Shown here piece by piece: positions 2,518-37,048 of a stretch of DNA of 53,966 bases. Source of the stretch: Candidatus Omnitrophota bacterium. Lineage in GTDB: Bacteria > Omnitrophota > Gorgyraeia > Zapsychrales > Fredricksoniimonadaceae. A program made the position numbers and the translations under genes. The DNA lies in NCBI GenBank assembly GCA_903959815.1, contig CAJBYM010000002.1:1-53966 (forward strand), in the 5' to 3' direction. How positions within the stretch are numbered: position 1 is the stretch's first letter; each line of letters opens with the position of its first letter. The notes beneath the pieces were generated by a model that ran no database searches, was not told where the DNA came from, and saw only the letters and a list, made by a program, of their open reading frames with translations.

Positions 2518-2577
2518 TATTAAATCTTTAGTTTAAAGGTGTGGGTTTAAAGTGGTTTTTTAGGGGTTTTTTATAAC

Positions 2578-2606
2578 TTGACATCATAAAGCCCTGTTGA
2601 TACTAT
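2578..2606 (+). promoter_or_regulatory. sigma-70 type promoter for HU and the aminoacyl-tRNA synthetase genes
   Basis: TTGACA at 2578-2583, a 17-base spacer, then TACTAT at 2601-2606. The -35 is a perfect consensus and the -10 matches 4 of 6. Transcription would start near 2613, leaving a leader of about 40 bases before the HU gene, whose strong ribosome site GAGGGAGG lies at 2638-2645. Confidence 0.7.
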
Positions 2607-2654
2607 GTTTACAAAAATTAGCTCGTATTTTTCCACAGAGGGAGGCTTCAGATT

Positions 2655-2927: not shown

Positions 2928-2928
2928 C

Positions 2929-18387: not shown

Positions 18388-21300
18388 ATGCCGACGGGTA
18401 AGGCCTTCCATAAAGTCCTCGAGAGCGTTAAAACAGTCCTTTTTGCTATGGGCGCGGTTTTTCTTACGTGTTTTGTGGCCTGGGCTAGCGGCATCACCGT
18501 CCCTGAAAATTCCCGCCTGAATATTGATTCCGGAGAGTTGCACGTTGAAACAGATAATGCGCCAGGTTCGGTCACTAACCGCGGCATCATCAGGACCACC
18601 ACAGGGAAGATCCGTTTAAACGGTAATTGGACCACCGTGGGTGTCGGGTCTTATCAGCCGGGCACAGGTGCAGTTATTTTTTCTGCGACAACGGGGACAA
18701 CACAGACTATAACCGCAGGACCTTTAGGTCCGGGCGGTATCGTTGTTGATTCTTTTTATGATCTGACCCATGAATCGACATCGGTGCTTGAAATCCAGTC
18801 AGCTACAAATCCGTTGAATATCACAGGGACCTTCAGGAATCTGGATGGTAAATTCAAGGCCAATGGCATGACCATGAATGTGACGAGGAATTGGATCAAT
18901 ACAGCGCCTTCTGCTGTAGGAAATCTTTCTTTTGAGCATGGTAATAATGCTGTGAACTTGATCGGTGGCGATCAGGAGATCCAGGGAGAAACGACATTTT
19001 ATGATCTTGATAAACATTTGACATCAGTGCAGCAACAACAGCTTGTCTTTCCGTCTGGAAAAAGGCAGACGATCCAGCATAAGTTGACATTGCTTGGTTA
19101 TGATACGACGCATTTCTTGGCTTTACATAAGAGCGCCGGGATTGATGCGGCTCAATTGAGATTGGAGCTTACAGGCACTAGTCAGAACATCCGTTTTGTT
19201 GATGTGTGGGACAATGATGCTTCCGGAGGGCGTATGTTGGTGGCCCGAGAATCGCCGGATCATTCGGATTACGCGACGTATCATACGACCAACTGGGCAT
19301 TCGGTGGTGTGACCATCAAGTGGGACGGGGCTCAGGATGATCATTGGGATAATCCGTACAATTGGAATATTGGTCTTGTTCCTGAACCCGGCGATATTGT
19401 TATCATCCCGTATGATGATGAGGCCCCAACTCCGACGCCATTGCCATTTCAGCCTGTGTTGAATGGCAATATTATTATCGGATCCCTTGAGATCAAGCCT
19501 AATGCGACCGTGACCCTGGATCATTATAATGTCACAGTGCAGAGTGTTTTGACCAATTCCGGCATGATCGTTCTTAACGGCAATGAATCGGTTGTGGCAA
19601 CGACGATGAATGATACGGGTGTGGTCAAATATGTAGGGCTTGTAGGCGGGACTTTGAGTGATGTGAATATCCCGGGGAGTTTTATCATCGGTGGGGCTCC
19701 GCGTAATAGTTATAACGCTCTTATTGTTGATGAGACAGATCCTGCAACGCCGGATACGTTTAAGATATCGTCTGATGTGATGGTTGCTACGACAGCAACT
19801 TTTACGGCAGGGACGGTTTCGATCATGTCTGGAAAGCTTTTTAAGGCGGATGGTTTGACCACGGTCAATGGCGGCACATTGAATGCGCAAAACGGTCATT
19901 TGGCGTTGAATAGTTTTACCATTTCTACCGGTTCTTTATCAGCGCCAGCGGCTGCCTATAGTTTTACGCTTTCGGGTAATTTTACACGCAGCGGGGGGAC
20001 GTTCACACCCAATGATGGTAAAGTCAGTTTTGTATATGACAGCTTCAATCCCAATACGCTGTTGAATCAAACGATCCTTGGCAATGTGGGTTTCTTTGGT
20101 TTGGATAAGACCATGGTGCTGGGGGATCCTGTACCCCAGACACTCACATTTGGTGCCGGGGATTTGGTGATCGTTCAGCATGATCTGACATTAAAAGGAT
20201 TGGATAATCCTGATTATTTGAATATTGCCAGCACAGATCCCGGTGTTACGCCGGGAAGAATACGGCTTTCGATCGGCGCCTTGCAGGATATTCAGAAAGT
20301 TTCTGTTTGGGACAATGATGCTTCTGGCGGGTCTTTGCCCTGGGGTGTGGCGCTGGTGGCGCGTTTATCACCGGATCATTCTAATCCTTCTTATAAAACT
20401 ACCAACTGGGTGTACGGGGCAACAACTTATCGTTGGGACGGAACGCCCCTGGCTTCGGCCACACTTCCTGCGACAGAGTGGAATGAGCCTTCAAATTGGG
20501 ACCTCGGCCTTGTGCCGGGTATCGATGATACGGTCATCATCCGTTCTGAGGATGAGACCAATGGCAATGCGCCGATCGTTAACCAGCCTATTTTATCGAC
20601 GAACGTGAGCATTGCTGATCTTACCATTCGTGAAACGAATGCCACATTGACCTTGAATGGCAACAATTTACAAGTGCAACCCGGCGTGTTCAGTCATAAC
20701 GGGATCCTTTATCTTAAGGGCAATGAGATATTGGGGCTTGTGCAGGATATTGATTCCGGTACATTTGTTTATCAGGGTGACGCGGCTCCCACGCAGTATA
20801 ATTTGACCACACCTAACACATTTTTTAATTTAGAGATCCAGGGGGCGCCTTCGGGGCCTCCTTCCGGGACTCTATTTGCGTTTACAGACAATGTGGATAT
20901 GACGATCTATGGCAGTTTGACCATGTCCGGGTCTTCCTTGGATGCGAGCGCCCACTCTTTGGATGTGCGTAAGAATTTCGTTATGACCGCAGGGGCTTTT
21001 AAGGCTCCGGGGATCACAAAAGATTTTAAACTGACAGGAAATTTTACACAAACAACGGCCACCGGATTTGATGCCAATGGCGGAACTCTGACGTTGAATG
21101 CGACTTCTGAGACAGATGATACGCAGCAGATCATTGAGGGTACAACCACATTTTCTGGTCTTAGCAAAACGACACCCTCTGCGACCAAGGTGCATCGGAT
21201 TATCTTTGATAGCTTAGGCCAACAGACGATCACACGAAGCCTTGAGCTGACGGGTTTTTCACAGCTGCATCCTTTGGAATTGAAGGCTACCGTGACAAAT

Positions 21301-24300
21301 TCTCCTGCGAAAATATCGTTACAACTGGGGGGCTTGCAAACCATTCAATTTGTAGATGTGCGTGATTCTGATGCTTCGTATGCCAGCGGCATATGGCTGG
21401 TGGCGCGCGACTCCGATGATCATTCAGATTTTACGACGTACAAGAATACGCATTGGTTGTTCGATATTCCGACGGTGCGATGGACAGGAACTCTTTCAAC
21501 GGATTGGAATGATCCCCACAACTGGGATCTTGGTTTTGTTCCGGTTAATAGCTATATGATCGGTGCGCTCACGATTCCGGGCGATGATGTTCAGATACCC
21601 AACGTGCCCAATCAGCCGCATTTAACAACGCCGCCCGGTGCTGTGAATTTGCGTAACATGACGATTGAAGTGGATGGGAATATTTATCTTGATGGTTTCG
21701 GCATGACAGTGACCGGAGCACTATCTAACCAGGGTACTGTGATCTTGCAAGGCACAGAACCTGTGACGATCCAGACACCGGACATAGACTCCGGAACGTT
21801 TAAGTATATGGGGCTCGATTCCGTTTCTCCCAGTACGATCCAGATCCTTGACATGACGGGTACGCCCTATGCACCGCTCACATTCTTCAATCTTGTGATC
21901 GCGGACACGGGATCTGTTCTTAATACGTTTCAGCCGAATGCGAATTTGAACGTCAATGGTTCATTGACGATTAACAACGGGATCCTGGATACATCTACGT
22001 CGTCTTTGGCGTTGACGGTGGCGGGTAATATGAGGGTGTCAGGGGGCGAGCTGGATGCGGCGCATGGATCAATCGCGCTTACGGGTTCAATGCTTCTTGA
22101 TGGAGGTGCTGTCTCCGCACCTGATACTGGCACGGATGCCGCGAGAACATTTACAGTGCAAGGGAATTGGACCAATACTTCCGGGATGTTCTCGCCTAAT
22201 ACCGGACGTGTTACATTTAACGGATCTAATAATATCACGTTCAGTGGCAATACGCCCTTTTGGGATCTTACGGTGATTGGTCCGCCGGCAGGCAGAACGG
22301 TATTTTTCCAGCAGGGGTCTAATCAAACGGTTGCAAACACGCTCAATATGTACGGTGATAATACGCATAAGCTTGTTTTGCGTTCCACCGTAGATAGTAC
22401 GCCTGGAGGAAGCTCTACTGATTGGATGTTGACGATATTATCCGGAACACCGCTGGTCAATAATCTTGATGTTCGGGATGCCAATGCTATTTTTCCTGTT
22501 TCCAATACAACGCTTAAAAAATATATCTTGGCCTTTAATTCCATTGATCAGAAAAATGCGGCTATTTCTACCAACACGAACTGGCTTTTCGTCATGCTTG
22601 ATATTGTTGCTCCTTTGAGTGATCGAACGGTCGATTCTGTGCCGACGATCATTGGGCATGGTATTCCAGGCGAGCCGCTTACGCTGCTGGATATAACCGG
22701 TAGTGTTGTCGCAACGACGATCGTGGATGCCAATGGGAATTTCCGTGTTGTGGTTGGGCAAGATGATGCCAATCTTGGTATTCCCATTAAGCCGGCGTTG
22801 GACATTAGTGCTGGAACCAATGACAATCAGATCGTGCCGGTCTATAACGGATATGCGGGGAATCCCTCGACGATCACCGTGGTGGCAACCACGACATCTA
22901 GTCAGGTCCCTGTGATCACGTGGCCTGCTAATATGGAACGTGTGGGTTCGCAAAATCCGACTATTACAGGTGAAGGTAAGCCTGGCGCTCATATCGTGAT
23001 CGTTTCTTATAATCCTTCCGGTTCTATGGCGTTAACACTGCCTCCCGATGCTTATGCGGGAGAAGGAACGGTGGGCCTGGATGGTAAGTTCGCCATTACT
23101 ATGACGCGGCCGCTGATGCCCGGGCATAATTTTGTGTCGGTCATTGTTGATGGTGTTTCAAGCAAGATCATGGAATATCTCATCAATGACGTAAAGGGAA
23201 CGGTTTTTGATCCGATCACCAACCAGCCTATTAAAGATGCCAGGGTTTCGCTTTATAACGCGAACGGGACTTTGGCTGTGCCAGGGGTGGATATCAGCAA
23301 TCTGGATATTAATCCGTTCATTACAGGCTCCGACGGAAAGTTCTTCTTTCTGACATCGGCGGGGCCTTTTAAGTTTGGGATTGATGCCGTGGGTTATGAT
23401 TATCCGACCAGGCTTTCGGATGCCGAGATGCCCGCAGGACGTAGCGTGACGGTAGGTTCACGCGGGGAGTTGTTTACTCCTGGACTCGCTGTGGTGATGG
23501 ATCAGCCTGTTGATCCGAATACGTTCACCTTCAGGGTTGAAAAGAAGGCGAATAAGGCTGAAGCACGCATTGGTGAGGTTGTGACATATACGGTAACGAT
23601 GGAAAGCCTTCTGCAATCAAATGTGGTTTATTTAACGAAAATGGCAGACGTTATTCCTCCGGGTTTTAAATATATGAGCGGGCGTGCCCAGTTTGATGGT
23701 GCGCCTGTTGAGCCGGAAGGTAATCGTCCGCTGCTGTTTGATACAGGGACGTTTACGGCGGGCCAGAAGAAAACCATCCGGTATCAGCTTGTTGTTGGCT
23801 CCGGCGTGGCGCCCGGGAATTATGAAAACGTGGCCACTATGAGATATACCAACAATTCGATCTTGTCGAATCGTGCAACGGCAACGGTTAAGATCATCCT
23901 GGATCCGCTCTTTGATGCCGGCACGATCTTTGGTAAGGTTTTCTATGACTGGAATGAGAATGGCCGGCAGGATGATCCAGAGTATGTGGCCGAAGATCGC
24001 GAGGAGATCATTGAAGGGCCGGTGCCGAATGTTCGGCTTGTGATGGAAGATGGAACGGTTGTGACAGCGGATGTTAACGGGCAGTTCCACATTCCTGCCC
24101 TGTTACCGGGCCGTCATTTGCTCAGGCTGGATGAACGTTCTTTGCCGCCGGGTGCTTATTTAACGGGCGATAAAGTACAGGTCATTGACGTGACGCCGGG
24201 GAGTATTTTCAAGATTAACTTTGGCGTGAATATGGATAATACGCAGATCGTCGGTAAAGATGCTGAGTTCTTCCAGAGATCGTTCTCGATTGATCAGGCT

Positions 24301-27300
24301 ACGGTTCAGCCCAAGCCGCGCTTGAATCTTAATGTCTTTAATGACAACATCCTTTTGCATAATCAAACGGTCATCGAACAGATCGAGTTCAGGATCTTCA
24401 CGAACTACGCACCCTTCTTGATGTCATGGCAGTTAGATGTCCTTGACGCCGACACGAAGAAGATCGTGCGTTCGTTCACAGGAACACGCCGTAATATTTA
24501 TGATCCGATCTATTGGGATGGCCGTGATGCCCTGGGTCAATATGTGCGTCCGGATTTTCATTATGCTTATGTCTTGAAGGTTAAGGATGAAAATGACAAG
24601 TGGGATGAAACGACGGAACAGGCCTTGTCTTTGAAAGTGATGACTGACGAGGAAATGACCGAACGTCAGCGTCAACGTTCTGATAAAGAGAAGATCGATG
24701 AAGCTAATGCGCGTTCCAAGAAATACCGTACGTTTCTCTTAGCGCTGGCCCAGGGGAACGCACTTAAGGCGCAGAACATTTGGGTCAAGGGCGATACGGT
24801 GGTTCTCAAGTCAACAGCTGCGGATGTGCGGCAGGTCCGGGTGCTTAAGAATGGCGAATTGTTCATGGAGATGCCGGTCCTGGAGCGCGCAGGTTTAACG
24901 GCACGCGAACTTCTGGATGGGGGTTCACAGCAGCAATCGACCCCGATGGAAGTCATTTTGCCTGACGGTGACTATGAACTTGATGTGGTTAGCGCCGACA
25001 GCTCTGCTGAAGGCGAGGGAAGGCCCGTCCTTTTGGCTCAAAAAGCTTCAGGCGAGGCTCTGGGGACAGGTGTGGTTCCTGCGGATGGGCTTAGTATGAT
25101 TGAGCCTGTTACGGTGCAGACCGCGCATTACAAGAGGGCTTTGAAGGTTGGTCAGGATTATCTGATGTTCGTCGCGATGGGAGATGGTAAAGCCGGATAT
25201 AACATGAATCGCGGTAACATTGAGCCTGTTCAGAGCAATGAGACATACAAGCGTGGTTTTTATAGTGAAGGTAAGCTGGCTTATTATTTAAAGGGTAAGA
25301 TCAAAGGCAAATATCTTGTGACATCGAGTTTTGATACAGAGCGTCAGCGCAAAGAAGTATTGCGCACCTTCAGGAATGAGGAATATTATCCGGTCTACGG
25401 GGATTCTTCAAGTGTTAACTATGATGCAACCAATACCGAAGGGCCTCTTTACCTTGCCGTTGATTGGGATAAATCTCAAGCTATTTGGGGCAATTACGCG
25501 GTGGCATTCAATAATGTTGAATTCGCCAATTATACCCGGTCACTTTATGGCGGAAAGCTTGATTACAAGACGGTGGCGAGCACGGATTATGGTGAGCCAA
25601 AGACAAATGTCGTGGTCTTTCATGCCGAAGTCCGTCAGCGCAGTGCGCACAATGAATTCTTAGGAACTGGCGGTTCTTTATATTATTTCAAACACCAGGA
25701 TATTGTTCAAGGGACCGACAGCATTAAGCTTGAAGTGCGTGATAGTGTGACGGGACTTGTGAAGTCGACAGCGGAGATGAAGGAAGGCGTGGATTACAAC
25801 ATGGACTATGCGAATGGCCGCATTCTTTTCTGGCGGCCGGTGTCGATGTCGGTGGACAGTGACCGCTTGATCTCCAATTCTTTGTTAGGAGGGGATCCTG
25901 TTTATGTGGTGGCAAATTATGAATACTTTGTCCATGACAAGATCGCTGAAGGGACCCAGGGTGTGCGTGTGGCCCAGGCTGTGGGGAAGAATCTTCTGGT
26001 GGGGGGGACCTATGTTTCTGAAACGCAGGCGAATCGCAATTATCAGTTGAAGGGTCAGGATGTGACGGTCCATCTTGGTAAGAATGCAACGGTGCAAGCC
26101 GAGTATGCCGAGACCTCTTCAGACGCGCAGAATAATTATATTTCAACCGATGGCGGGATCACGTTCAGTCAGTTGGCATCTGCGGATAATGCTACGGGCA
26201 GGGCTTATGGCATCAAACAGGATGCGCGGCTTTTTGACCGTATCGGTCTTAAGAGTTATTACAAGTGGATCGATGATGGGTTCTCGACAAGTGGCACCAC
26301 ATCCCAGCAGGGCAAGGAGTTGAAGGGGCTTGCGATGACGTTTGATCTGACGCCTGTCACGCGTCTGACCGCCAGCCGTGATGTCCAGCGGCTCATTGAT
26401 CGCGGGAATCTTCAGACAGCCATGCAGGTCGGTGCCAAGGAGACAACAACGACTCTTGTTCAGGTGGTGCATGATGCGCGTCGTTTAAGACTTAAGGAAG
26501 AATTTCAGAGTGTAGAAGTTAAAGGAGCTGACGGGGTGACGACCCGTAATACGAACACGCTGAGTGCAGCCGCGCAGGCTGAGTATGCACTCAATGAAAA
26601 GACGGATCTCTTGTTGCGTCATGAAGCGAGCCTCTCTGGTGCCGCAACGCAGGCTACGACGGTGGGCATCAAACGCCAGATCACGGATAAGTTGAGTGCC
26701 AACCTTGAGGAAACATTCAGCACGGATGGCACGGCCACGAAGGTTGGGGCTACGGCCAACGTGACGCCTAAACTTGCGGTTAATACCGACTTCACATTGG
26801 CTCAAACCCGTGCGGGGCAGACCGCCCAGACCGTGGCGTTGGGGGGTAAAGGGCAGATCAACAATAATACGTCACTCGAAGCCACGACCAGTGTCACGCA
26901 GACAAGTGCCGGTGTAGATGAAAAGACCCTTGCTTTGGGGGCTACAAGCAAGGTTGATGATAATACCAATGTTAAACTCGGTGTTGAATCGACGGCAACA
27001 GCAGATGCTACTAAATCACGACAGGCGCTTGTTCTTGCGGGGACGAAGACAGGGAAAGAAGGGCGTGAAACAACAACGGGTGTGAAGCTTGAGGATCGTC
27101 CGGTTGAGGGTCAGACCACGGTCATTACGGCGGGCGAGAAAGGTCAGATCAATTCAATGATGCAGATGGCGAGTGAACGTTCATTCGCATTCGGAGCCAA
27201 TGGCCAGGAACAGGCTGATACTTATAAGATCGCCAGGACTAAAGACGGGAGGAGCGTGGAAACGTCATATGCCCGTAAGTTTGCGGATACGCAGAGTGAA

Positions 27301-28539
27301 CATTCCGACTCGAATATCTTTGCGTTGAGCGGGGATGTGAACGACCGTGTGGCGTTACAGGCAAGCCTTGAAAAAGGCCAGGCTTTGAATCTTGATGGTT
27401 CGATCTACAATCGCATTGCGTTGTCGACGGGGTTGGGGTATGTCGAAAAAGATCTTGAGACGTCCAAGGTCATTTTCCAAAGTTCGACGAAGGCAGAGGT
27501 TCGTCTTGACCAGGGTGTGACCGATAAGCAGCAGTATGTGATTTATCAATCAGCAGAAGGCAAGATCAATGAGCAAACAACAGTTCGCGGCAAGTTCAGT
27601 TACTCTACAACGAAGAATATGAGCACCAAGAAAGCTGAGGCCGGATATAAGGAGATCATGTTGGGGGCGGCGTATCGTCCTATTGCGATGGACCGGGTTA
27701 ATCTTTTTGGAGAGTACACGTATAAAGAGAATAAAGGGCCGGTTGGTCAGGTTCTTGCCAGTGATGTTGAACAGACCAAAATGCATGTCTTGAGCGTGGG
27801 TGGTGCATATGAGTTAAGTGAAAAGTGGGAGTTGATCGAAAAATTAGCTATGCGCATCATGGAAGAAAAAGTGACAGGTTTTCAATTTGCTAAAACACAT
27901 ACGTGGCTTTTGATCAATCGAGCGAATTATGTTCTTAACCAGGATTGGAAGATCGGCGCTGAGTACAGGATCCTTACGGTTAAGGAAGCTAGAGATCAGA
28001 AAAGAGGGTTGTTAGTTGAGGCGGTGCGTAGTGTTAACGATAATGTTGAGTTGGGTATCGGGTATAATTTCACGAACTTTGTAGATGATCTGACTAATCT
28101 CAGTTATACGGTGCAGGGGCCGTTCATTCGCATGACCGGCAAGCTTTATGATCAAAGTCCTGAAGAGCGTGCACGGGCCAGGGGTAAATGGCTCGAACAT
28201 CGTGTTGAGATCTATGCCAAGAGAATGCTTAAGAAGGAGATCGAGGATCCTAATAGCAGGGTGATGGTTGAGTTTAATCGCATGTATCAGATGGCCAAGG
28301 CTGCGCAACAGCATGGTAAATATGAAGAATCGCGCGAGATTTACAAGAATATCATTACGGCCACGCAGATGATGTATGAAGAAGCGGCCCAGTTCGTCCG
28401 TCATCATATCGCCTATGAAGAGAAGATCTACAATGCGTATCAGCGTGCGCAGGAATATTATGCCAAAGGTGAGTTTTGGCAAGCTAGAAAATTGTGGGAA
28501 AAAATTGTGGAAGAAGCTTCCAAGGCTGTGCTAGAATAA
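18388..28539 (+). CDS. giant secreted multidomain protein with predicted outer-membrane beta region
   Basis: 3,383 residues, one intact frame. A signal-like hydrophobic segment lies at about 14-34 (VFLTCFVAWASG). Residues about 35-1390 hold four beta-rich repeats of about 360 residues, marked by WDNDASGG-like motifs at 271, 638, 989 and 1360 and by NWxxGxVP motifs. Ig-like units start near 1409 and 1512, a carboxypeptidase-regulatory-like fold near 1602, a DUF11-like domain near 1713 (GEVVTYTVTMES), an SdrD-like unit near 1845 (DWNENGRQDD, perhaps calcium-binding) and a FlgD-like Ig fold near 1995. Residues about 2247-3250 are amphipathic beta strands resembling an outer-membrane barrel. Residues 3255-3383 are helical and TPR-like (YYAKGEFWQARKLWEKIVEE). 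Function unknown; likely surface adhesion, secretion or envelope architecture. Confidence 0.8.
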   Translation: MPTGKAFHKVLESVKTVLFAMGAVFLTCFVAWASGITVPENSRLNIDSGELHVETDNAPGSVTNRGIIRTTTGKIRLNGNWTTVGVGSYQPGTGAVIFSATTGTTQTITAGPLGPGGIVVDSFYDLTHESTSVLEIQSATNPLNITGTFRNLDGKFKANGMTMNVTRNWINTAPSAVGNLSFEHGNNAVNLIGGDQEIQGETTFYDLDKHLTSVQQQQLVFPSGKRQTIQHKLTLLGYDTTHFLALHKSAGIDAAQLRLELTGTSQNIRFVDVWDNDASGGRMLVARESPDHSDYATYHTTNWAFGGVTIKWDGAQDDHWDNPYNWNIGLVPEPGDIVIIPYDDEAPTPTPLPFQPVLNGNIIIGSLEIKPNATVTLDHYNVTVQSVLTNSGMIVLNGNESVVATTMNDTGVVKYVGLVGGTLSDVNIPGSFIIGGAPRNSYNALIVDETDPATPDTFKISSDVMVATTATFTAGTVSIMSGKLFKADGLTTVNGGTLNAQNGHLALNSFTISTGSLSAPAAAYSFTLSGNFTRSGGTFTPNDGKVSFVYDSFNPNTLLNQTILGNVGFFGLDKTMVLGDPVPQTLTFGAGDLVIVQHDLTLKGLDNPDYLNIASTDPGVTPGRIRLSIGALQDIQKVSVWDNDASGGSLPWGVALVARLSPDHSNPSYKTTNWVYGATTYRWDGTPLASATLPATEWNEPSNWDLGLVPGIDDTVIIRSEDETNGNAPIVNQPILSTNVSIADLTIRETNATLTLNGNNLQVQPGVFSHNGILYLKGNEILGLVQDIDSGTFVYQGDAAPTQYNLTTPNTFFNLEIQGAPSGPPSGTLFAFTDNVDMTIYGSLTMSGSSLDASAHSLDVRKNFVMTAGAFKAPGITKDFKLTGNFTQTTATGFDANGGTLTLNATSETDDTQQIIEGTTTFSGLSKTTPSATKVHRIIFDSLGQQTITRSLELTGFSQLHPLELKATVTNSPAKISLQLGGLQTIQFVDVRDSDASYASGIWLVARDSDDHSDFTTYKNTHWLFDIPTVRWTGTLSTDWNDPHNWDLGFVPVNSYMIGALTIPGDDVQIPNVPNQPHLTTPPGAVNLRNMTIEVDGNIYLDGFGMTVTGALSNQGTVILQGTEPVTIQTPDIDSGTFKYMGLDSVSPSTIQILDMTGTPYAPLTFFNLVIADTGSVLNTFQPNANLNVNGSLTINNGILDTSTSSLALTVAGNMRVSGGELDAAHGSIALTGSMLLDGGAVSAPDTGTDAARTFTVQGNWTNTSGMFSPNTGRVTFNGSNNITFSGNTPFWDLTVIGPPAGRTVFFQQGSNQTVANTLNMYGDNTHKLVLRSTVDSTPGGSSTDWMLTILSGTPLVNNLDVRDANAIFPVSNTTLKKYILAFNSIDQKNAAISTNTNWLFVMLDIVAPLSDRTVDSVPTIIGHGIPGEPLTLLDITGSVVATTIVDANGNFRVVVGQDDANLGIPIKPALDISAGTNDNQIVPVYNGYAGNPSTITVVATTTSSQVPVITWPANMERVGSQNPTITGEGKPGAHIVIVSYNPSGSMALTLPPDAYAGEGTVGLDGKFAITMTRPLMPGHNFVSVIVDGVSSKIMEYLINDVKGTVFDPITNQPIKDARVSLYNANGTLAVPGVDISNLDINPFITGSDGKFFFLTSAGPFKFGIDAVGYDYPTRLSDAEMPAGRSVTVGSRGELFTPGLAVVMDQPVDPNTFTFRVEKKANKAEARIGEVVTYTVTMESLLQSNVVYLTKMADVIPPGFKYMSGRAQFDGAPVEPEGNRPLLFDTGTFTAGQKKTIRYQLVVGSGVAPGNYENVATMRYTNNSILSNRATATVKIILDPLFDAGTIFGKVFYDWNENGRQDDPEYVAEDREEIIEGPVPNVRLVMEDGTVVTADVNGQFHIPALLPGRHLLRLDERSLPPGAYLTGDKVQVIDVTPGSIFKINFGVNMDNTQIVGKDAEFFQRSFSIDQATVQPKPRLNLNVFNDNILLHNQTVIEQIEFRIFTNYAPFLMSWQLDVLDADTKKIVRSFTGTRRNIYDPIYWDGRDALGQYVRPDFHYAYVLKVKDENDKWDETTEQALSLKVMTDEEMTERQRQRSDKEKIDEANARSKKYRTFLLALAQGNALKAQNIWVKGDTVVLKSTAADVRQVRVLKNGELFMEMPVLERAGLTARELLDGGSQQQSTPMEVILPDGDYELDVVSADSSAEGEGRPVLLAQKASGEALGTGVVPADGLSMIEPVTVQTAHYKRALKVGQDYLMFVAMGDGKAGYNMNRGNIEPVQSNETYKRGFYSEGKLAYYLKGKIKGKYLVTSSFDTERQRKEVLRTFRNEEYYPVYGDSSSVNYDATNTEGPLYLAVDWDKSQAIWGNYAVAFNNVEFANYTRSLYGGKLDYKTVASTDYGEPKTNVVVFHAEVRQRSAHNEFLGTGGSLYYFKHQDIVQGTDSIKLEVRDSVTGLVKSTAEMKEGVDYNMDYANGRILFWRPVSMSVDSDRLISNSLLGGDPVYVVANYEYFVHDKIAEGTQGVRVAQAVGKNLLVGGTYVSETQANRNYQLKGQDVTVHLGKNATVQAEYAETSSDAQNNYISTDGGITFSQLASADNATGRAYGIKQDARLFDRIGLKSYYKWIDDGFSTSGTTSQQGKELKGLAMTFDLTPVTRLTASRDVQRLIDRGNLQTAMQVGAKETTTTLVQVVHDARRLRLKEEFQSVEVKGADGVTTRNTNTLSAAAQAEYALNEKTDLLLRHEASLSGAATQATTVGIKRQITDKLSANLEETFSTDGTATKVGATANVTPKLAVNTDFTLAQTRAGQTAQTVALGGKGQINNNTSLEATTSVTQTSAGVDEKTLALGATSKVDDNTNVKLGVESTATADATKSRQALVLAGTKTGKEGRETTTGVKLEDRPVEGQTTVITAGEKGQINSMMQMASERSFAFGANGQEQADTYKIARTKDGRSVETSYARKFADTQSEHSDSNIFALSGDVNDRVALQASLEKGQALNLDGSIYNRIALSTGLGYVEKDLETSKVIFQSSTKAEVRLDQGVTDKQQYVIYQSAEGKINEQTTVRGKFSYSTTKNMSTKKAEAGYKEIMLGAAYRPIAMDRVNLFGEYTYKENKGPVGQVLASDVEQTKMHVLSVGGAYELSEKWELIEKLAMRIMEEKVTGFQFAKTHTWLLINRANYVLNQDWKIGAEYRILTVKEARDQKRGLLVEAVRSVNDNVELGIGYNFTNFVDDLTNLSYTVQGPFIRMTGKLYDQSPEERARARGKWLEHRVEIYAKRMLKKEIEDPNSRVMVEFNRMYQMAKAAQQHGKYEESREIYKNIITATQMMYEEAAQFVRHHIAYEEKIYNAYQRAQEYYAKGEFWQARKLWEKIVEEASKAVLE
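18490..22599 (+). repeat. four protein-level repeats of about 360 residues in the giant gene
   Basis: Each unit runs through hydrophobic beta-strand turns (LxGNFT and FxGL-like) into a block with VDVWDNDASGG, then DHSxxxTxxTNW, then a WxG...NWxxGxVP block with a following D(D/T)VxIP. The marker motif starts near residues 271, 638, 989 and 1360. The fourth copy is degenerate and lacks the final WxG block. At DNA level they are diverged, so recombination is unlikely now. Confidence 0.75.
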
Positions 28540-28615
28540 CGGCGTTTATTTAATAATGTCATTGATTTCAATCGGTTCTGTCATTTCTCCGTCGGAGGGG
28601 CTTTAAAAAGACCTT

Positions 28616-31600
28616 ATGAAGCAAAACCGTCTGGCAATTCTTGTTATATCTGCGTTGGCCTTCCTGGTTTGTGCTGAGGTTCAAGCGCAATCCACAGTGG
28701 ACGGACAGCCTTCGGTCCTTAAAGAGGACAAAGGGCAGTCGAATTATGTCTACGATCTAAAGCTCCTCATTAAAAAATCTAAAGATAATATTAAAGATGT
28801 TAATGAAAAGATCAAAGAACAGGCTGTTATCAAGCGCAATCAGCAGCGCGAGGATAAAGCCAGGGAATATTATGAACAGGCTTTGAAACTGCAGGAAGAA
28901 GGCCGCCTTGAAGAGGCCCGGCAAATTTTTGATAAAGCGATCCGCATCACCGAACATCCTGAAATGAAATATTATATTAAGGAAAGCGAACGGCGTTCCA
29001 AATTGCAGCAGGTGGCGTTGCAGCGTGAAGAGACCGATCAGGAGCGTCGGGCACAAGAGGATCAAAAGCTTGTGATGGAACGCGCGGAGAATTCTTACCA
29101 GACAGCCGTCAATCTCTATAAACAACAGAAATTTCGTGAAGCCAAAGATGAGTTCATCTTAGTGGAAGAGCTTTATCCTGATTATAAAGCGGTCCGTAGT
29201 TATCTGCAGATCATAGAACAGGACATCGTTCAATCCGAACATTTGGACATGAAAGAGCAAAAGAGCGAGATCGAACGTCAGCAGAAAGAAGAAGAGATCG
29301 CGCGTTTGCGTGAAAAAGAGTTGTGGCGTAAAGAGGTTGATAAGAAGGAACAAGAGCGTCAGCAGCAATTGCGCAAGCAGGCTCAGGGTGTTTATGAGGA
29401 AGCGCTGAAGCTTTTTGATGAACGTAAATATATGGCCGCCCGTGACAAGTTTCAGGAAGTGGAGTGGGTGGTGCCGGATTATAAAGCAACACGTACGTAT
29501 TTAAACCGCATTGAGGGTGGGATCGACGATCAGAAAAAGGAGATCACCCAGGAGCGTCAGCGAGAATTGGAGAAACAACGTTGGCAAGAGGCGTTGAGCG
29601 ATAAGAAATCGACGGAAGAACGCCGTAAAGCCATAGAGCAGCGAGAACAAGAGCACCTGATGCAGGTTAAGGATCAAGCGGAATTCGTTTATGTCGCGGC
29701 GGTGGCTTTGTTTGAGAAAGACCTCCTGGAACAATCAAAAGAAAAGTTTAATGAAGTAGAAGGCATTTATCCGAATTATAAGTCTAGCCGTGATTATCTG
29801 AAACGCATTGATCAGGTTGGCCGTGAAAAGATCGAGCGTGAAGCGTTGAAAAAGAAGACTGAGGATGAGCGTCGTATTTGGGAAGAAGAAATGGATCGCC
29901 GCAAGGAAGATAAGCAGAAGTTCAAGCTCCTGGCGAGTGAAGCGGATATTTTTTATAAAGATGCGATGGCCCTCTATCAAACAGGCCGTTTGATCGAAGC
30001 CAAAGAAAAATTCCTTGAGGTTGATCAACGCGTTCCTGATTATAAGTCGACCCGGAGTTACCTCAAGCGGATTGACGATGACATTGAGCTTTTAGTTAAG
30101 ACCCAGCGGGTTCAGGATTCTTTGGTAAGTCAGCGTGAAGAAATTGAGAAGATGCGTATGATGCGCGATAAGGCTGAAGAGGTTTATCGCCAGGCCGTTG
30201 AGGCCTACGAGGTCAGGAATTTTGATGTGGCAGCGGACAAGTTCCGTGAGACAGAGGGAATATATCCTGATTATAAGAAAACAAAGTTGTATCTTGGTCA
30301 AATTGAAGACAATATTCGTTCGCAACAGGAAATGGCGGCGCGTGCTGAGCGTGAAAAAGAGGCAGCCGTTCTTTATGGTGAAGCTGTTGCTTTTTATCAA
30401 GCCAGGCAGTTTGAGGATGCAAAAAAGAAATTCTTGGCGGTCCAGGATGTGCTTACGGGTTATAAAGAGACTTCAGATTTTCTTGGCCGGATCGATGATG
30501 ATATTTTAAAGAAAAAAGAAAATGATCTTTTACAAATAAAAGAAGAGCGCGTTAAGGGGTTGTACGCCCAGGCGCTGGCGTTTTACAAGAATGGCGATCT
30601 ATCTGAGGCCAAACAGAGATTCCTAGAGGTTGAGGTCATTTATCCTGGATATAAGGACGCACTGCGTCTTTTGGAAACGATCGATGCTGAGATCCAAAAG
30701 AAACAAAAAGAGGTTATGGGCCGTCAAGGGGCCGATGCCGCTGAAAAATTTTATAATGAAGCGTTGGGGCTTTATCAGTCAGGTGATTATGCGGGCGCGA
30801 AAGCCAAATTCATTAAAGCAGAGGTTGCTCAGCCTGACTACAAGGATTCTTTAAAATATCTGGCTCGTATTGATGTGGATATTGATCGCAAGAGCAAAGA
30901 AGAGGATTTTAAGCGCAGATCGCAGGAGGCCGAGCCGATCTATCTTCAGGCTGTGGCTCTTTATAAAGATGGAGATTTTATTGAAGCCAAGCGAAAGTTC
31001 ATTGCCCTGCAATCTGTTTTCTTAGGGTATAAAGATGCGACAGTTTATTTGGCGCGTCTTGATAAAGACATCCGTGATCAGGAGGAGCGTTTGATCAGGG
31101 AGGAGAACAAGGGCCGGGCAGAAGTGCTTTATAGTGATGCGCTTAAACTTTATGCCGATCGTCAATTTGTGGATGCCAAAGCGAGATTTGTAGAACTCGT
31201 TGGTTTGGATCCTGCTAATAAGAATGCGCTTATGTATTTGGCGCGTATTGATGAAGATATCCGTAAAGAATCCGCCAGGATCAAGCGTGAATCTTTAGAA
31301 GGGCGCGTGGCTGAGCCGTACGCTCAGGCTGTTACGTTTTATCATGATGGGGATTTTGAATTGGCAAAAACAAAGTTCCTGGAAGTTTCCCGATTGATAT
31401 CAGATTATAAGAAGACCAGGTTTTATCTTTCCCGTGTGGATGAAGATATTCGTACCAAGAAGATCGTGGAAGATAAAGAGCGGATGCTCAAGGCTGAAGG
31501 TTTATATAAACAAGCCATGGACCTGATGGCCAAAGAAAAGATGGTAGAATCGTTTGTAAAGCTTGCCGAGGTCGAAAACATTTATCCCGATTATAAAGCC

Positions 31601-34600
31601 GTTCGTTCGCATATGGAGAAATTGCGTAAGTTGGAAGTTAAGAATGGATTTAATCTTCCGGAACCACCCATATCAGTTCCTGTTATTTCAACAGATCAAG
31701 AACAGGTGGCGGCCCTTTATAAAGAAGCCGTGGAACTGTATAAGAATAAGAAATATGATGAGGCGCGTCTTAAGTTTGAAGCTGTTGCGGCGATCAGGCC
31801 CGGGTATCGTTCAACTCAAAAATACTTCGATAGTCTGCATGAGTTTAGGGATATCGCTGCTAAGAAGGCGGCGGCTGAAGACAAGAGTGCTAAAGTTAAA
31901 GCTGCGGCTCAACTTGAAGCCTTGGTCAAAGCTGAAGCCAGAGAGGGGCTTCAATCCGAGCTTTTAGCGCCTGCTAAAACGGCGGATAAGGCTGTTGTTT
32001 CCCCTGAAGATGCCCAGGCTATTGCTAAATTATCAGAGCGCTCCAGCGCGATCTATCAACAGATCAGGTCTTTATCTGAAGAGAAGGAACTCTCGGATAC
32101 ATCCCGTACATTCGCGAAGGTGGATCGTCTGATCGAAAATCTTGATGTAGAGCGTCGGCGTATCGCGGATCAGCTTGCGCGAGAAGCAAAAGCCAAAGAA
32201 GCAGAATCCGCGCGCATTAAACGTGTTGAAAAAGAAAAGATAGTCGCGCAGCAAGTTGAAGCTTTGCGTCAAAAGACTCAAGAAGGAGTTCAAGACGATC
32301 AAGCAAAGTTAGCCAAAGAGCATGAAGATCTGCGCAAGAAAGAGCGTGATGAGCTTGATCGTTTGAAGGATCAGGCGCGTGAAGCTCAGTTTAAGGCAGA
32401 GGCTGTTTATCAACAGGCTGTCATTTTCTATCGCCAGAAGAATTACCTCGCCGCGCAGGCGCGTTTGCTAGAGGTAGGGAAGATCGTTCCGGATTATAAG
32501 GATGTTGCAAAACTTCTGATGCGTGTTGAACGCGCTCAGGATGAAGTGAAGATCATGGCTGAAGAGCGACAGGACCGGGATGTGATCAAGGGTCTTGCTG
32601 AGAAATCTGCTGCGCTTAATGTTGAGATCCTGCAGCTTTCTCAAAATAAGGATTATCCGTCTATTGAACAGCGCTTCAATGATCTAGAGGCTATTCTTAA
32701 AGATATTCAAACGGTGAAAGGCCGTATTGCTGATCGTCGCAGTGAATTTGAATTGCGTTGGGAAAAACGAACATTCGCACAGAGGGCGGATGTGAAGCCT
32801 CCTGTTCTTTTTGAAGAAAAGGCAGCTCCCAGACTTGACAAGAAGATTGAAGCGGTTGTTTCACCTGAGGAAGCTCAGGCGATCGCCAAGCTCTCTTCCC
32901 GTTCGAGTACGATCTATCAGCAGATCAAATCTTTGTCTGAAGACAAACAATTGTCTGATGCTTCCCGTACATTTGCTAAGGTTGATCGTTTGATGGGCAA
33001 TCTTGAAGCAGAGCATCGTCGTATTGCCGAACAGATCGCGCGCGAGAAGAAGCTTGGAGAAGCGGAAGCTTTGCGTATTAAACGCGTCGAGAAACAACAG
33101 GTCGCGGCGCAGCAGATCGAGACTGTTCGTCAAAAAGCTGAAAATAAGGCTGAAGAAGACATTCAAGCTCATCAGGCGCAGTTGGTCAAGGAGCGTGAAG
33201 AACTTCGAAAGAAAGAGCGCCGTGATCTTGAACAATTGAAAGATCAGGCACGCGAAAGCCAGCTTAAGGCTGAGGTTCTTTATCAGCAGGCCTTAGGGCT
33301 TTATCGTCAGAAAGATTATGATGCTGCGCAGGCGCGTTTGCTCGAAGCACAGAAGATAGTGCCGGACTACAAGGATACGGGAAGACTTCTTGTTCGTGTT
33401 GAACGAGGCCAGGATGAAGTTAAAATTATGGCAGCGGAGCAACAGGATCGGGATACCATTAAAGGTCTTGCCGAGAAAGCAGCTTCTCTTAATATTGAGA
33501 TTTTGGCGCTTTCGCAGAAAAAAGATTATGTCCTTGTTGAACAACGTTTTAATGACCTGGAGTCGATCCTTAAGGAGATCCAGACCGTTAAGGGGGCTAT
33601 GGTCGACCGTCGCAGCCAGTTTGAGACACGCTGGGAAGCTAGGGCATCAGAGCGCAAGGAAGATGTGAAGAAGCGGACTCCTCCCAAAGCTGTTAAAGAG
33701 GGTGAGGATTTTATTTCGCCGCGTCAGAAGGCCCGGATGCTCTTTAAAGAAGGTGAGCAATTTTATGCGGCAGAGAATTTTGCAGAAGCACGCGTGAAGT
33801 TTATGGAAGCGGTCCGGCAGGATGCTTCTTTTAAAGCGCCGATGAGTTATGTAACGCGCATTGATCGCATTTTGTCACAAAGGGATTTTGAAGTTCATCA
33901 GCAACAGGAGAAGGCCAAAGTCCGTCAATTGGAAGAGGCAGATCAGGCCGCGGAAGGCGCGTCTGGAGCTGTTGTAAAACCGGCTGAGACCATCATTGAT
34001 CCTGAGCGTGCGGCACAGGTTCTTGCAGAGGGCGTTCGTCTTTATGAAGCAGGACGTTATCGCGAGGCACGGATCAAGTTTGAAGAACTGCTTCATGTTG
34101 GTACTTCTGTTGACCAACAGAGAGCATCTCGTTATTTGACGCTCATTGAACAAGCTTTGGAAAAAGAAAAGAAAGTCACGCAAGCTGAACAGCGTGCGCA
34201 GGAAGATCGCTATCTTGAAGAGCGCCGTGCTCAGGTGAGATTGGCCTGGGAACGTGACAAGAAGCAGCAAGAGCGTGAACGGCGCAAGACACGCGAACTT
34301 GTAGCTGTTCAGCGTGAGCTGGATATCCGTCGGCAGCAGGAACTAAGGGCGATCGAAGAGCAGAATTTAAGACAGCGCCGTGAAATGTTAGAAAGAAAGA
34401 GCGTAGAGTTGGCCAAGGCTTTGCATGATGATGAACAAGAGCGCACAAAGTTTTCTGTTGAGGCGATTGAGGAAAGATCACCTTTGGATGTTAAAAGGGC
34501 AGAGGTGCAGGCTAGGACAGAGGTAACGGAATCGATACGGACGGAAGTTCAAGGCACTGCGGTTGCGGTTGATGCCCTTGAACAGGCTTCTCAAGAAAAA

Positions 34601-35233
34601 GTTGAGACAGACGCCAAGATGCAGAAGCAACGTCGTAGATTGGAACAATTGGAGTCTAAAGAAGAACGGGATCGTCGTCTTGTCCAGGAAAAAGAACGTC
34701 GTAAGATCGATCAATCTGAACTTGGAAATCGCGATGCTTCACAGAAGCGCCTGAAGGATAAACAAAATGTGCAAAAAGCTGCCGTGTTGTCGCAGCAACA
34801 GGAAGAGGATCTCAAGAAAAGCACTGTCGAGCGTCAGCAGCAAGAGCTTATCCGTCGCAATCAACAGGAAGTTCAAGCTATTTTAAAAGAAACTCCTGTT
34901 GCTCCGGCCGTTTCTGTACCGGCGGCGTCATCTGCTGTTGTTATTCCTTCGACGCCGAAGGGTGTGGCTGATGAGGACCCCGCTGCTCTTCTTCTTAAGC
35001 AGGCGGCGGAGCAGGAGAAGCAATATTTGCAAGAACAGCGTGCGTTGATACGTAAGGATTTTGAAGATGGCGTCGAGCGTCTTTATAATGAAGCGATAGG
35101 GCTTTTTAAGAAGAAGATGTATGTTCAAGCCCGTCAGGATTTTGAGCAGGTTGATAAACTTATTAAGGGTTATAAAAAGACGGCACAGTATTTGAAAGAT
35201 ACAGAACGTTATTCATTACGTTCTGGACGTTAG
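28616..35233 (+). CDS. giant periplasmic TPR/coiled-coil protein
   Basis: 2,205 residues. A signal peptide ends at about residue 24 (EVQA before QS). I count about 19 TPR-like units of the pattern YxxAxxLYxxGxxxxAKxKFxEVxxxxPDYKxxxxYLxRID, near residues 82, 155, 256, 355, 442, 520, 582, 647, 707, 772, 832, 899, 959, 1029, 1260, 1549, 1706, 1799 and 2150. They are separated by highly charged helical linkers likely to be coiled coil. Residues about 1127-1385 and 1414-1680 are a tandem duplication. No membrane anchor follows the signal peptide. Its TPR units resemble the tail of the giant protein upstream, which ends 76 bases before this start. GGAGGGG at 28594-28600 is rather far from the ATG. 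Likely a periplasmic scaffold; function is inferred. Confidence 0.85.
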   Translation: MKQNRLAILVISALAFLVCAEVQAQSTVDGQPSVLKEDKGQSNYVYDLKLLIKKSKDNIKDVNEKIKEQAVIKRNQQREDKAREYYEQALKLQEEGRLEEARQIFDKAIRITEHPEMKYYIKESERRSKLQQVALQREETDQERRAQEDQKLVMERAENSYQTAVNLYKQQKFREAKDEFILVEELYPDYKAVRSYLQIIEQDIVQSEHLDMKEQKSEIERQQKEEEIARLREKELWRKEVDKKEQERQQQLRKQAQGVYEEALKLFDERKYMAARDKFQEVEWVVPDYKATRTYLNRIEGGIDDQKKEITQERQRELEKQRWQEALSDKKSTEERRKAIEQREQEHLMQVKDQAEFVYVAAVALFEKDLLEQSKEKFNEVEGIYPNYKSSRDYLKRIDQVGREKIEREALKKKTEDERRIWEEEMDRRKEDKQKFKLLASEADIFYKDAMALYQTGRLIEAKEKFLEVDQRVPDYKSTRSYLKRIDDDIELLVKTQRVQDSLVSQREEIEKMRMMRDKAEEVYRQAVEAYEVRNFDVAADKFRETEGIYPDYKKTKLYLGQIEDNIRSQQEMAARAEREKEAAVLYGEAVAFYQARQFEDAKKKFLAVQDVLTGYKETSDFLGRIDDDILKKKENDLLQIKEERVKGLYAQALAFYKNGDLSEAKQRFLEVEVIYPGYKDALRLLETIDAEIQKKQKEVMGRQGADAAEKFYNEALGLYQSGDYAGAKAKFIKAEVAQPDYKDSLKYLARIDVDIDRKSKEEDFKRRSQEAEPIYLQAVALYKDGDFIEAKRKFIALQSVFLGYKDATVYLARLDKDIRDQEERLIREENKGRAEVLYSDALKLYADRQFVDAKARFVELVGLDPANKNALMYLARIDEDIRKESARIKRESLEGRVAEPYAQAVTFYHDGDFELAKTKFLEVSRLISDYKKTRFYLSRVDEDIRTKKIVEDKERMLKAEGLYKQAMDLMAKEKMVESFVKLAEVENIYPDYKAVRSHMEKLRKLEVKNGFNLPEPPISVPVISTDQEQVAALYKEAVELYKNKKYDEARLKFEAVAAIRPGYRSTQKYFDSLHEFRDIAAKKAAAEDKSAKVKAAAQLEALVKAEAREGLQSELLAPAKTADKAVVSPEDAQAIAKLSERSSAIYQQIRSLSEEKELSDTSRTFAKVDRLIENLDVERRRIADQLAREAKAKEAESARIKRVEKEKIVAQQVEALRQKTQEGVQDDQAKLAKEHEDLRKKERDELDRLKDQAREAQFKAEAVYQQAVIFYRQKNYLAAQARLLEVGKIVPDYKDVAKLLMRVERAQDEVKIMAEERQDRDVIKGLAEKSAALNVEILQLSQNKDYPSIEQRFNDLEAILKDIQTVKGRIADRRSEFELRWEKRTFAQRADVKPPVLFEEKAAPRLDKKIEAVVSPEEAQAIAKLSSRSSTIYQQIKSLSEDKQLSDASRTFAKVDRLMGNLEAEHRRIAEQIAREKKLGEAEALRIKRVEKQQVAAQQIETVRQKAENKAEEDIQAHQAQLVKEREELRKKERRDLEQLKDQARESQLKAEVLYQQALGLYRQKDYDAAQARLLEAQKIVPDYKDTGRLLVRVERGQDEVKIMAAEQQDRDTIKGLAEKAASLNIEILALSQKKDYVLVEQRFNDLESILKEIQTVKGAMVDRRSQFETRWEARASERKEDVKKRTPPKAVKEGEDFISPRQKARMLFKEGEQFYAAENFAEARVKFMEAVRQDASFKAPMSYVTRIDRILSQRDFEVHQQQEKAKVRQLEEADQAAEGASGAVVKPAETIIDPERAAQVLAEGVRLYEAGRYREARIKFEELLHVGTSVDQQRASRYLTLIEQALEKEKKVTQAEQRAQEDRYLEERRAQVRLAWERDKKQQERERRKTRELVAVQRELDIRRQQELRAIEEQNLRQRREMLERKSVELAKALHDDEQERTKFSVEAIEERSPLDVKRAEVQARTEVTESIRTEVQGTAVAVDALEQASQEKVETDAKMQKQRRRLEQLESKEERDRRLVQEKERRKIDQSELGNRDASQKRLKDKQNVQKAAVLSQQQEEDLKKSTVERQQQELIRRNQQEVQAILKETPVAPAVSVPAASSAVVIPSTPKGVADEDPAALLLKQAAEQEKQYLQEQRALIRKDFEDGVERLYNEAIGLFKKKMYVQARQDFEQVDKLIKGYKKTAQYLKDTERYSLRSGR
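31994..33665 (+). repeat. tandem duplication of about 287 codons inside the TPR gene
   Basis: Two copies start at about 31994 and 32855, an offset of 861 bases (287 codons, in frame). Each holds SPE(D/E)AQAIAKLS, TIYQQI-like and SRTFAKVDRL helices, a charged linker, one TPR unit with IVPDYKD, and a coda with DIQTVKG or EIQTVKG. The second copy has a few extra residues in the linker. Confidence 0.88.
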
Positions 35234-35290
35234 AAAACCTCCGCGTTGACCTGCCTAAAAGAATTCAGAAAAACTAACAGGGAGTTGAAG

Positions 35291-37048
35291 ATGAAGGTTC
35301 TCAAGATTGTTCTTATTGTGGCGGCCGTCTTAGTTGTTCTCGTTATGGCGGGGCTGTTCGTTTTTCTTAAGACATTTGATGCGAATAAATTCTTGCCGCA
35401 GATCACTCAGCAGGCGACACAGGCCCTTGGCCGGGATGTTCGTGTCGGCCGGGCAGAGCTGGGATTTTCTTGGGTTAACGGCATTGGTCTTCAGGTCAAG
35501 GATATTGTGATTGCGGATGACCCTAAGTTCGCGGACAACCCTTTCTTGACCGTGGAAAGGGTTGAAATCGGTGTGAATGTAGGGGCATTGATCTTCGAGC
35601 ATAAGATCCAGCTTGTTCAGGTTGTCGTTGTTTCTCCTCATGTGGTCATTATCCGTTCAAAAGAAGGCCTTGTGAATGCAGCAACTTTGGGTGTCAGGCC
35701 CGTTGTGTCTGCGACGGATCCTGCTACTCAAACACCAGGAGGTTCTGCCGGAAGTCTTCCGGCATTTCTTGTTAATGATATTAAGATCACCTCTGCCCGT
35801 GTGACGTATGTGGATGAGATGTTCACGCCACGTTTGGCGCTTGAATTGGCGCATATGGATATTAATGTTCGGGATCTTACGTTGACGGGTCCATTTGGAG
35901 TTACGATCAAAGCAGCGTTGTTTTCAGATGAGCAGAATGTGCGCGTGGATGCGAAAATGGCTGTGGATATTCTTAAACAGTCGCTTTTGATCCAGGGAAT
36001 GAACATTGAAGCGGATCTTATCAAATTTAATCTTTCGCGTTTGGAGAGCGAGCTTTCTATGCTGAAACCGCTGTCCCTTAAGAAACTGGGAGGAGTGTTA
36101 AAAGTATCTGTTTCTGATGCTCAGATCAGCGCACAAGGATTGTTGCGTTTGAAGGGACAGTCTGTTCTTGAAAAAGGGTTTGTTTTGTCCGCGCTTTTAC
36201 CCGTGCCTTTTGAAAGCATTCAAATGCAGGCGGATCTTGATGAGAAAAAGATCAATGTCAAAAGTTTTTCGTTGGTGGTGGCCGGAGGAGCTGTGAATGG
36301 AGGGGTGCTTTTGACGGATTATCTCTCTGATTTGAAAGCGAGTGCGACATTCGATGCGCAAAGGATCAATGCGCAGAAGCTTGTAGAAGGGTATAAAGCG
36401 CCTGTTAACATGAGCGGTCTTATTTCTGCGGCAGGAGAGCTTAATTTTTCGGGCAAGTCTCCGGAAGACGTCTTGTCTTCCTTGAGTGGACAGGTCAAGG
36501 GGGAACTCAAAGACGGAGTCCTTGAAAGCATGAATCTTCTTGCTTTTGGATTAGAGAATATTCCCATGTTGCCCGGACTTTTGGATAGCGTGATGGCAGA
36601 TTTCTCTTCGGAAACACAAGATGAGATCAAGAAGGGTATAACGCGTTTTGAAATGTGCAAGGCCGATGCGCACATCACCCGTGGTTTGATGCAATTGGAT
36701 GCGGCCGATATTATGACCCGTGATTTTAGTGTTCATGCGACAGGTACCGTTAGGCTTATCGAAGATCTTTCGATCAAAGCTGAGATCCGTATGGAAAAAG
36801 AGCTTTCTCGACGTTTAAATGAGAGGGTCAAAGAGCTTTCCTATCTTCAAGATGATCAAGGTAAGATCTATTTACCTATGAAATTAACAGGGCGTGTGGT
36901 GAAGCCGGTTTTAATGCCGGACATTGAATATTTGACCAAAAAACTGGTCATAGCGGCTGGCGGAGATCAGTTGCAAAAAGCATTGGGGGGAAGCCCTGCT
37001 GCCGCAGAAGCTGTGAGTGCAATCTTTGATCTTTTTAAGAAAAAATAG
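35291..37048 (+). CDS. AsmA-family envelope protein
   Basis: 585 residues. One N-terminal membrane helix (IVLIVAAVLVVLVMAGLFVF) anchors it in the inner membrane. The start of the AsmA fold follows: ITQQATQALGRDVRVGRAEL near residue 37, then repeated beta-strand blocks, with a C-terminal AsmA-like region containing LMQLDAADIMTRDFSVHATG. AsmA-like proteins (TamB, YhdP, AsmA) bridge the periplasm, and several are implicated in lipid transport or outer-membrane biogenesis. The ATG at 35291 has AGGGAG a few bases upstream; an upstream in-frame start at 35246 is unlikely. It probably shares a transcript with the giant genes, so a role in their export or assembly is plausible but unproven. Confidence 0.87.
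   Translation: MKVLKIVLIVAAVLVVLVMAGLFVFLKTFDANKFLPQITQQATQALGRDVRVGRAELGFSWVNGIGLQVKDIVIADDPKFADNPFLTVERVEIGVNVGALIFEHKIQLVQVVVVSPHVVIIRSKEGLVNAATLGVRPVVSATDPATQTPGGSAGSLPAFLVNDIKITSARVTYVDEMFTPRLALELAHMDINVRDLTLTGPFGVTIKAALFSDEQNVRVDAKMAVDILKQSLLIQGMNIEADLIKFNLSRLESELSMLKPLSLKKLGGVLKVSVSDAQISAQGLLRLKGQSVLEKGFVLSALLPVPFESIQMQADLDEKKINVKSFSLVVAGGAVNGGVLLTDYLSDLKASATFDAQRINAQKLVEGYKAPVNMSGLISAAGELNFSGKSPEDVLSSLSGQVKGELKDGVLESMNLLAFGLENIPMLPGLLDSVMADFSSETQDEIKKGITRFEMCKADAHITRGLMQLDAADIMTRDFSVHATGTVRLIEDLSIKAEIRMEKELSRRLNERVKELSYLQDDQGKIYLPMKLTGRVVKPVLMPDIEYLTKKLVIAAGGDQLQKALGGSPAAAEAVSAIFDLFKKK

What the first reader, a model, noticed from the sequence alone, without database searches (positions are those of the whole stretch)
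18388..37048. Possible envelope-spanning giant system: surface/outer-membrane protein, periplasmic TPR scaffold and AsmA protein
Three consecutive genes encode proteins of 3,383, 2,205 and 585 residues. The first has surface-type domains, a barrel-like region and a TPR-like tail; the second is an unanchored periplasmic TPR array; the third is an inner-membrane AsmA bridge. The tail of the first and the TPR units of the second share a pattern (YYAKGEFWQARKLW versus YYEQALKLQEEGRLEEARQIF), which suggests they stack in the periplasm. I know of no described system with this composition. Domain identities are inference from reading.
Basis: partly seen in the sequence, partly recalled or inferred. 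Interest (0 to 1): 0.8.

Follow-up and report, generated by a model that had tools for sequence, protein, structure and literature searches.

The report
Shared periplasmic docking tail on Omnitrophota barrels
A giant predicted outer-membrane protein of an uncultured bacterium ends in a small helical tail that is almost always encoded next to one matching helical partner protein, and the same tail-partner pair also occurs on an unrelated secretion pore in relatives, so it looks like a reusable periplasmic docking module rather than the three-part envelope-spanning machine first proposed.

Summary
The three genes exist as described (3,383, 2,205 and 585 aa). The first two belong together; the AsmA gene does not belong to the module.

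The giant is a signal-peptide protein with exoprotein-like repeats, Ig-like domains, a long predicted beta-barrel (about 41 strands in a medium-confidence model) and a 127-aa helical TPR tail. The next gene starts with a conserved 93-aa "head" (a Y-x-Y-x-L-K-x-L-I helix plus one TPR), followed by a variable coiled-coil/TPR rod.

Among 44 distinct tailed giants, 43 have the head gene directly downstream. The exception carries a truncated head motif fused onto its own tail. Forty-three genomes of other classes have the barrel without the tail, and none has the head. The same tail also sits on an unrelated barrel, the ShlB/FhaC-type two-partner-secretion transporter, again usually beside a head gene; all those tails form one clade, so the tail was swapped once.

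AsmA occurs in 29 of 32 family genomes against 18 of 32 for the giant, is often separated by a DUF255 gene, and was not found near the transporter-type loci.

Best reading: the head docks on the tail under the outer membrane, and the rod scaffolds or tethers the pore. Binding and function are inferred, not shown.

The parts
18388..28539 (+). Giant outer-membrane/surface protein, 3,383 aa
   Evidence: ORF; orthologues in 18 of 32 family genomes; barrel core in 75 of 285 Omnitrophota genomes
18505..22587 (+). N-terminal repeats (aa ~40-1400, NWDxGxVP-type), predicted extracellular passenger
   Evidence: Align to Omnitrophota exoproteins including TPS-domain proteins L205 and L212, and L208
22645..22764 (+). 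Bacterial Ig domain Big_6 (aa 1420-1459)
   Evidence: Pfam PF17936, 30.5 bits, above cutoff
23191..23448 (+). CarboxypepD_reg domain (aa 1602-1687)
   Evidence: Pfam PF13620, 33.1 bits, above cutoff
23542..23700 (+). DUF11-type repeat (aa 1719-1771)
   Evidence: TIGR01451, 22.5 bits, just under cutoff 24
25165..26487 (+). Conserved core of the barrel family (aa 2260-2700)
   Evidence: Alignment A1, 78% mean column identity; phylum-wide search
25894..28140 (+). Predicted beta-barrel region (aa ~2503-3251), ~41 consecutive strands; hairpins around aa 2780-2980 low confidence
   Evidence: AlphaFold2 model, pTM 0.57, mean pLDDT 66; Foldseek hits to LptD, SprA, TonB-dependent receptors, SlpA with low TM-scores
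28156..28536 (+). C-terminal helical TPR tail (aa 3257-3383), predicted periplasmic
   Evidence: Alignments A3/A5; helices at pLDDT ~75-90; shared with TpsB-type transporters
28616..35233 (+). TPR/coiled-coil rod protein, 2,205 aa, signal peptide by eye, no membrane anchor seen
   Evidence: ORF; TPR_2; synteny
28742..29020 (+). Conserved head of the rod protein (aa 43-135)
   Evidence: Alignment A4, 31 sequences, 66% mean column identity; full-length in 38 of 285 genomes
28745..28819 (+). Candidate docking motif YVYDLKLLIKKSKDNIKDVNEKIKE (aa 44-68)
   Evidence: Conserved in A4; fused truncated to the giant tail in L119; kept without TPR in L250
29021..35230 (+). Variable array of TPR units and coiled coil
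   Evidence: Units seen in window protein; partner proteins range from 112 to 2,230 aa in relatives
35291..37048 (+). AsmA-family protein, 585 aa: neighbour, not judged part of the module
   Evidence: PF05170 91.9 bits; 29 of 32 family genomes versus giant in 18

Best explanation
The giant is a secreted outer-membrane protein: an N-terminal passenger of exoprotein repeats and Ig-like domains (probably extracellular), a large C-terminal beta-barrel, and a TPR tail that follows the last strand and should lie in the periplasm. The next gene encodes its dedicated periplasmic partner, whose conserved N-terminal head (Y-x-Y-x-L-K-x-L-I helix plus one TPR) docks on that tail, while its variable rod of TPR and coiled coil scaffolds or tethers the pore in the periplasm. 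Tail and head form one module that was also swapped, once, onto ShlB/FhaC-type transporters. AsmA is an operon neighbour. Shown by sequence: linkage, co-occurrence, swap, cis fusion. Inferred: topology, binding, scaffold or tether role.
For: 43 of 44 distinct giant tails have a head gene directly downstream. In 285 genomes: tail in 41, full head in 38, both in 35 (Fisher p 4e-35, not phylogeny-corrected); 32 of 42 tails have an adjacent head by profile, 35 counting diverged heads. 43 genomes of other classes have the barrel but no tail and no full-length head; such proteins end at ...GKF/GKY. The same tail occurs on ShlB/POTRA_2 transporters, 10 of 13 beside a head gene; those tails are one clade at 100/99 although the barrels are unrelated (hhalign 0.3%). 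L119 lacks the head gene and its shortened tail ends in YPYNLDKLIKMSEKSIKRIDRKL; the partner in L250 keeps only the motif.
Against: No interface was predicted or measured. Counts are not phylogeny-corrected and the barrel swap is a single event. Heads without a found tail: G001, G145, G286, G013; tail without head: G225; orphan tail fragment G159. The L119 fusion could be a decayed gene pair. The barrel model is medium confidence with low TM-scores to solved barrels, and which side the N-terminal domains lie on was not tested.
Confidence: 0.6

Rival explanations
1. The TPR protein is a periplasmic chaperone or assembly factor that docks transiently on the tail and handles the passenger or barrel during export, rather than a structural tether.
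For: Both tail-bearing barrel types are predicted exporters or displayers of large exoproteins; some partners are only 112-136 aa, too short to span the periplasm.
Against: Partners of up to 2,230 aa are larger than a holdase needs; nothing here separates chaperone from scaffold.
Confidence: 0.22
2. One reading: giant, TPR rod and AsmA form one trans-envelope bridge.
For: The three genes are adjacent in the window genus and several sister genera; AsmA follows, usually after a DUF255 gene, in related families.
Against: AsmA is in 29 of 32 family genomes versus the giant in 18, sits beside a headless TPR array without a giant in L086, and was not found near transporter-type tail/head loci.
Confidence: 0.08
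3. Tail and head are just conserved operon neighbours with no physical contact.
For: Gene order around this locus is widely conserved, including housekeeping genes.
Against: The head gene accompanies the tail on an unrelated barrel at other loci, is missing from barrels without tail, and its motif is fused in cis once.
Confidence: 0.1

Closest known systems
Two-partner secretion transporter TpsB (ShlB/FhaC/CdiB)
   Same: Relatives carry the same tail and neighbouring head gene; the giant's repeats align to TPS-domain exoproteins
   Different: The giant has no POTRA or ShlB match and its barrel is unrelated; the window genome's own TpsB is a separate tailless gene ending LQVSKKF
Exopolysaccharide porins with TPR (PgaA, BcsC, PelB; AlgK as separate lipoprotein), PMC9384988
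   Same: Outer-membrane barrel working with a periplasmic TPR scaffold
   Different: From own knowledge the TPR there precedes the barrel; here a short tail follows it and the long rod is a separate protein; no polysaccharide genes were identified nearby
Treponema pallidum FadL orthologues TP0548, TP0859, TP0865, PMC12369335
   Same: C-terminal TPR domain after an outer-membrane barrel, predicted periplasmic
   Different: FadL-type barrel; no dedicated TPR partner is described in the passage read; homology of the tails was not tested
Type IX secretion SprA with the SprE partner
   Same: Very large barrel; SprA complexes that include SprE are among the Foldseek hits
   Different: No sequence match in the PDB search; TM-scores about 0.1; SprE as a TPR protein is from own knowledge
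Omnitrophota giant ORFs reported by Seymour et al. 2023, PMC10066038
   Same: Giant, few annotated domains, proposed role in adhesion
   Different: Those are over 20 kb with predicted transmembrane helices; the passages read mention no barrel, TPR tail or partner

Membership tests
TpsB / two-partner secretion transporter (giant) | POTRA_2 and ShlB domains | tested here: not met
   No Pfam match; barrel profile versus TpsB profile hhalign probability 0.3%
Classical autotransporter (type Va) (giant) | Pfam autotransporter beta-domain at the C-terminus | tested here: not met
   No such match in the Pfam scan
Classical autotransporter (type Va) (giant) | Protein ends at the last barrel strand | tested here: not met
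   A 127-aa helical tail follows the barrel; distant tailless relatives do end at ...GKF/GKY
Outer-membrane beta-barrel protein | Run of amphipathic strands closing a barrel | tested here: inconclusive
   About 41 consecutive strands, pTM 0.57; best Foldseek hits are LptD, SprA, TonB-dependent receptors and SlpA but TM-scores are low
TPR protein (28616-35233) | TPR repeats over the curated cutoff | tested here: met
   TPR_2 65 bits, cutoff 27
AsmA family (35291-37048) | Pfam AsmA match over cutoff | tested here: met
   PF05170 91.9 bits, cutoff 29.8
Three-part envelope bridge | AsmA gene confined to genomes and loci with the giant | tested here: not met
   AsmA in 29 of 32 family genomes, giant in 18
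PgaA/BcsC/PelB-type exporter | TPR superhelix N-terminal to a 16-strand porin | tested here: not met
   Helical TPR is C-terminal and the strand run far exceeds 16

The most novel reading that the evidence does not exclude
Omnitrophota have a reusable periplasmic docking system, tail plus head, that plugs different outer-membrane pores into a family of TPR rods of very variable length, including a giant barrel that may have more strands than any solved one.
Probability: 0.35. Interest if true: 0.8.

Novelty: new variant of a known kind. Interest (0 to 1): 0.6.

Why it matters
Proteins with a TPR domain on an outer-membrane barrel are known, but a C-terminal tail with a matching partner gene that also occurs on an unrelated secretion barrel suggests a modular way to couple surface pores to the periplasm in a phylum with almost no experimental cell biology. 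It gives a small, testable target (a 127-aa tail and a 93-aa head) and a handle on giant proteins proposed to act in adhesion or predation.

Tried and rejected
AsmA as a module member: rejected on distribution. Tail/TPR sequence pattern as evidence of stacking: kept only as generic TPR similarity. Giant barrel as a TpsB relative: rejected. Sequence search of the barrel and tail against solved structures gave nothing useful. The AsmA protein as a query in genome contigs found no relative. The DUF255 gene between TPR and AsmA was considered as a component and set aside as probable housekeeping. Promoter and terminator scans gave no clear operon boundary. Papers: no hit for Omnitrophota with two-partner secretion, and no paper found on a TPR-tailed TpsB.

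Full report
Observation. The three ORFs are present as stated. Pfam and NCBIfam support Big_6, CarboxypepD_reg and a sub-cutoff DUF11 repeat in the giant, TPR in the second protein and AsmA in the third.

Synteny. The window lies in a 1.81 Mb Omnitrophota-type genome (the phylum is inferred from record titles of close relatives). In its GTDB family, 18 of 32 genomes have the giant's C-terminal region and 29 of 32 have an AsmA homologue. Giant, TPR protein and AsmA are adjacent in the window genus and several others; in other genera a DUF255 gene, and sometimes a one-helix coiled-coil gene, separates TPR from AsmA. In G015 (L086) a TPR array without the head sits near AsmA with no giant.

Giant. 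Its barrel core is found in 75 of 285 sampled phylum genomes and in single records labelled Auribacterota, Nitrospira, Alphaproteobacteria and Cyanobacteria (some labels may be mis-binned). Two forms exist: long tailed proteins in the window's class, and ~1,550-aa tailless proteins in other classes that end at ...GKF or ...GKY like ordinary outer-membrane proteins. An AlphaFold2 model from 37 sequences (pTM 0.57, mean pLDDT 66) shows about 41 strands from aa 2503 to 3251 followed by helices at aa 3258-3382. A shallower first model gave the same layout. Foldseek returns LptD, SprA, TonB-dependent receptors and SlpA with low TM-scores, so the barrel fold is likely but closure and strand number are not established. 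The N-terminal repeats align to exoproteins, two of them with TPS domains.

Tail and head. The tail (aa 3257-3383) and the head of the TPR protein (aa 43-135) are each conserved. Of 44 distinct giant tails, 43 have a head gene directly downstream. The exception, L119, a single-contig genome, has no head hit, and its shortened tail ends in the head's opening motif before a stop; this could be a working cis version or a decayed pair. In 285 genomes, 41 have the tail, 38 a full head, 35 both (Fisher p 4e-35, uncorrected for shared ancestry). The 43 genomes of other classes with the barrel have no tail and no full-length head.

Second carrier. Tails also end proteins of about 700-760 aa with POTRA_2 and ShlB domains, related to CdiB and FhaC. 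Of 13 distinct tails of this kind, 10 lie beside a head gene, one has a partner keeping only the motif (L250), one genome has its head on another contig (G058), and one has none (G225). The TpsB and giant barrels are not detectably related, while the TpsB tails form one clade at 100/99. The tail therefore moved between barrel types once, and the head gene is found with it on both; the head tree is too poorly resolved to trace its own path. The window genome's own TpsB is tailless and next to a TPS-domain exoprotein.

Mechanism. The simplest reading is a docking module under the outer membrane: the head binds the tail and the variable rod scaffolds or tethers the pore. The motif Y-x-Y-x-L-K-x-L-I is the best candidate for the contact because it is the part left in the most reduced partners. 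Topology, binding and function are inferred. Whether the rod is a tether, a scaffold or a chaperone is open; very short partners (112-136 aa) favour a docking or chaperone role in those lineages, very long ones a scaffold.

Comparison. TPR domains on outer-membrane barrels are known: PgaA, BcsC and PelB (PMC9384988), and C-terminal periplasmic TPR domains on three T. pallidum FadL orthologues (PMC12369335). What appears new is the dedicated partner gene and the sharing of tail and partner by two unrelated barrels. Searches of the paper library found no description, which is weak evidence since subscription journals are mostly missing.

Noticed in passing
L219 (G000:C22): The window genome has a canonical tailless TpsB (572 aa, ends LQVSKKF) next to a TPS-domain exoprotein.
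   Followed up: yes
L119 12701-13174: Giant tail shortened and fused in frame to the opening motif of the head, then a stop; possible natural cis fusion or decayed gene pair.
   Followed up: partly
L202, L203, L204, L209, L210, L212, L213: Tails on TpsB proteins end in a conserved [K/R/E]P[LF]xLE[FM]-like motif, recalling an outer-membrane beta-signal after a helical tail.
   Followed up: no
window 14834-16990 (-): DEAD-box helicase with an archaeal helicase domain 4 (PF21280, E 1.8e-32) and HHH: Hel308-like, unusual in a bacterium.
   Followed up: no
L071 6217-8268 and equivalents: DUF255 (Thioredox_DsbH) gene between the TPR and AsmA genes in several genera.
   Followed up: partly
window 11795-14839 and 40214-43480: Large proteins of 1,014 and 1,088 aa without Pfam match; the second is strongly conserved in synteny (64-75% identity).
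   Followed up: no
L253 5623-5952: Orphan 109-aa tail fragment without a barrel, probably a gene remnant.
   Followed up: no
G221:C109 and G221:C88: One genome with two tailed barrel proteins, each followed by its own head gene, the second pair strongly diverged.
   Followed up: partly
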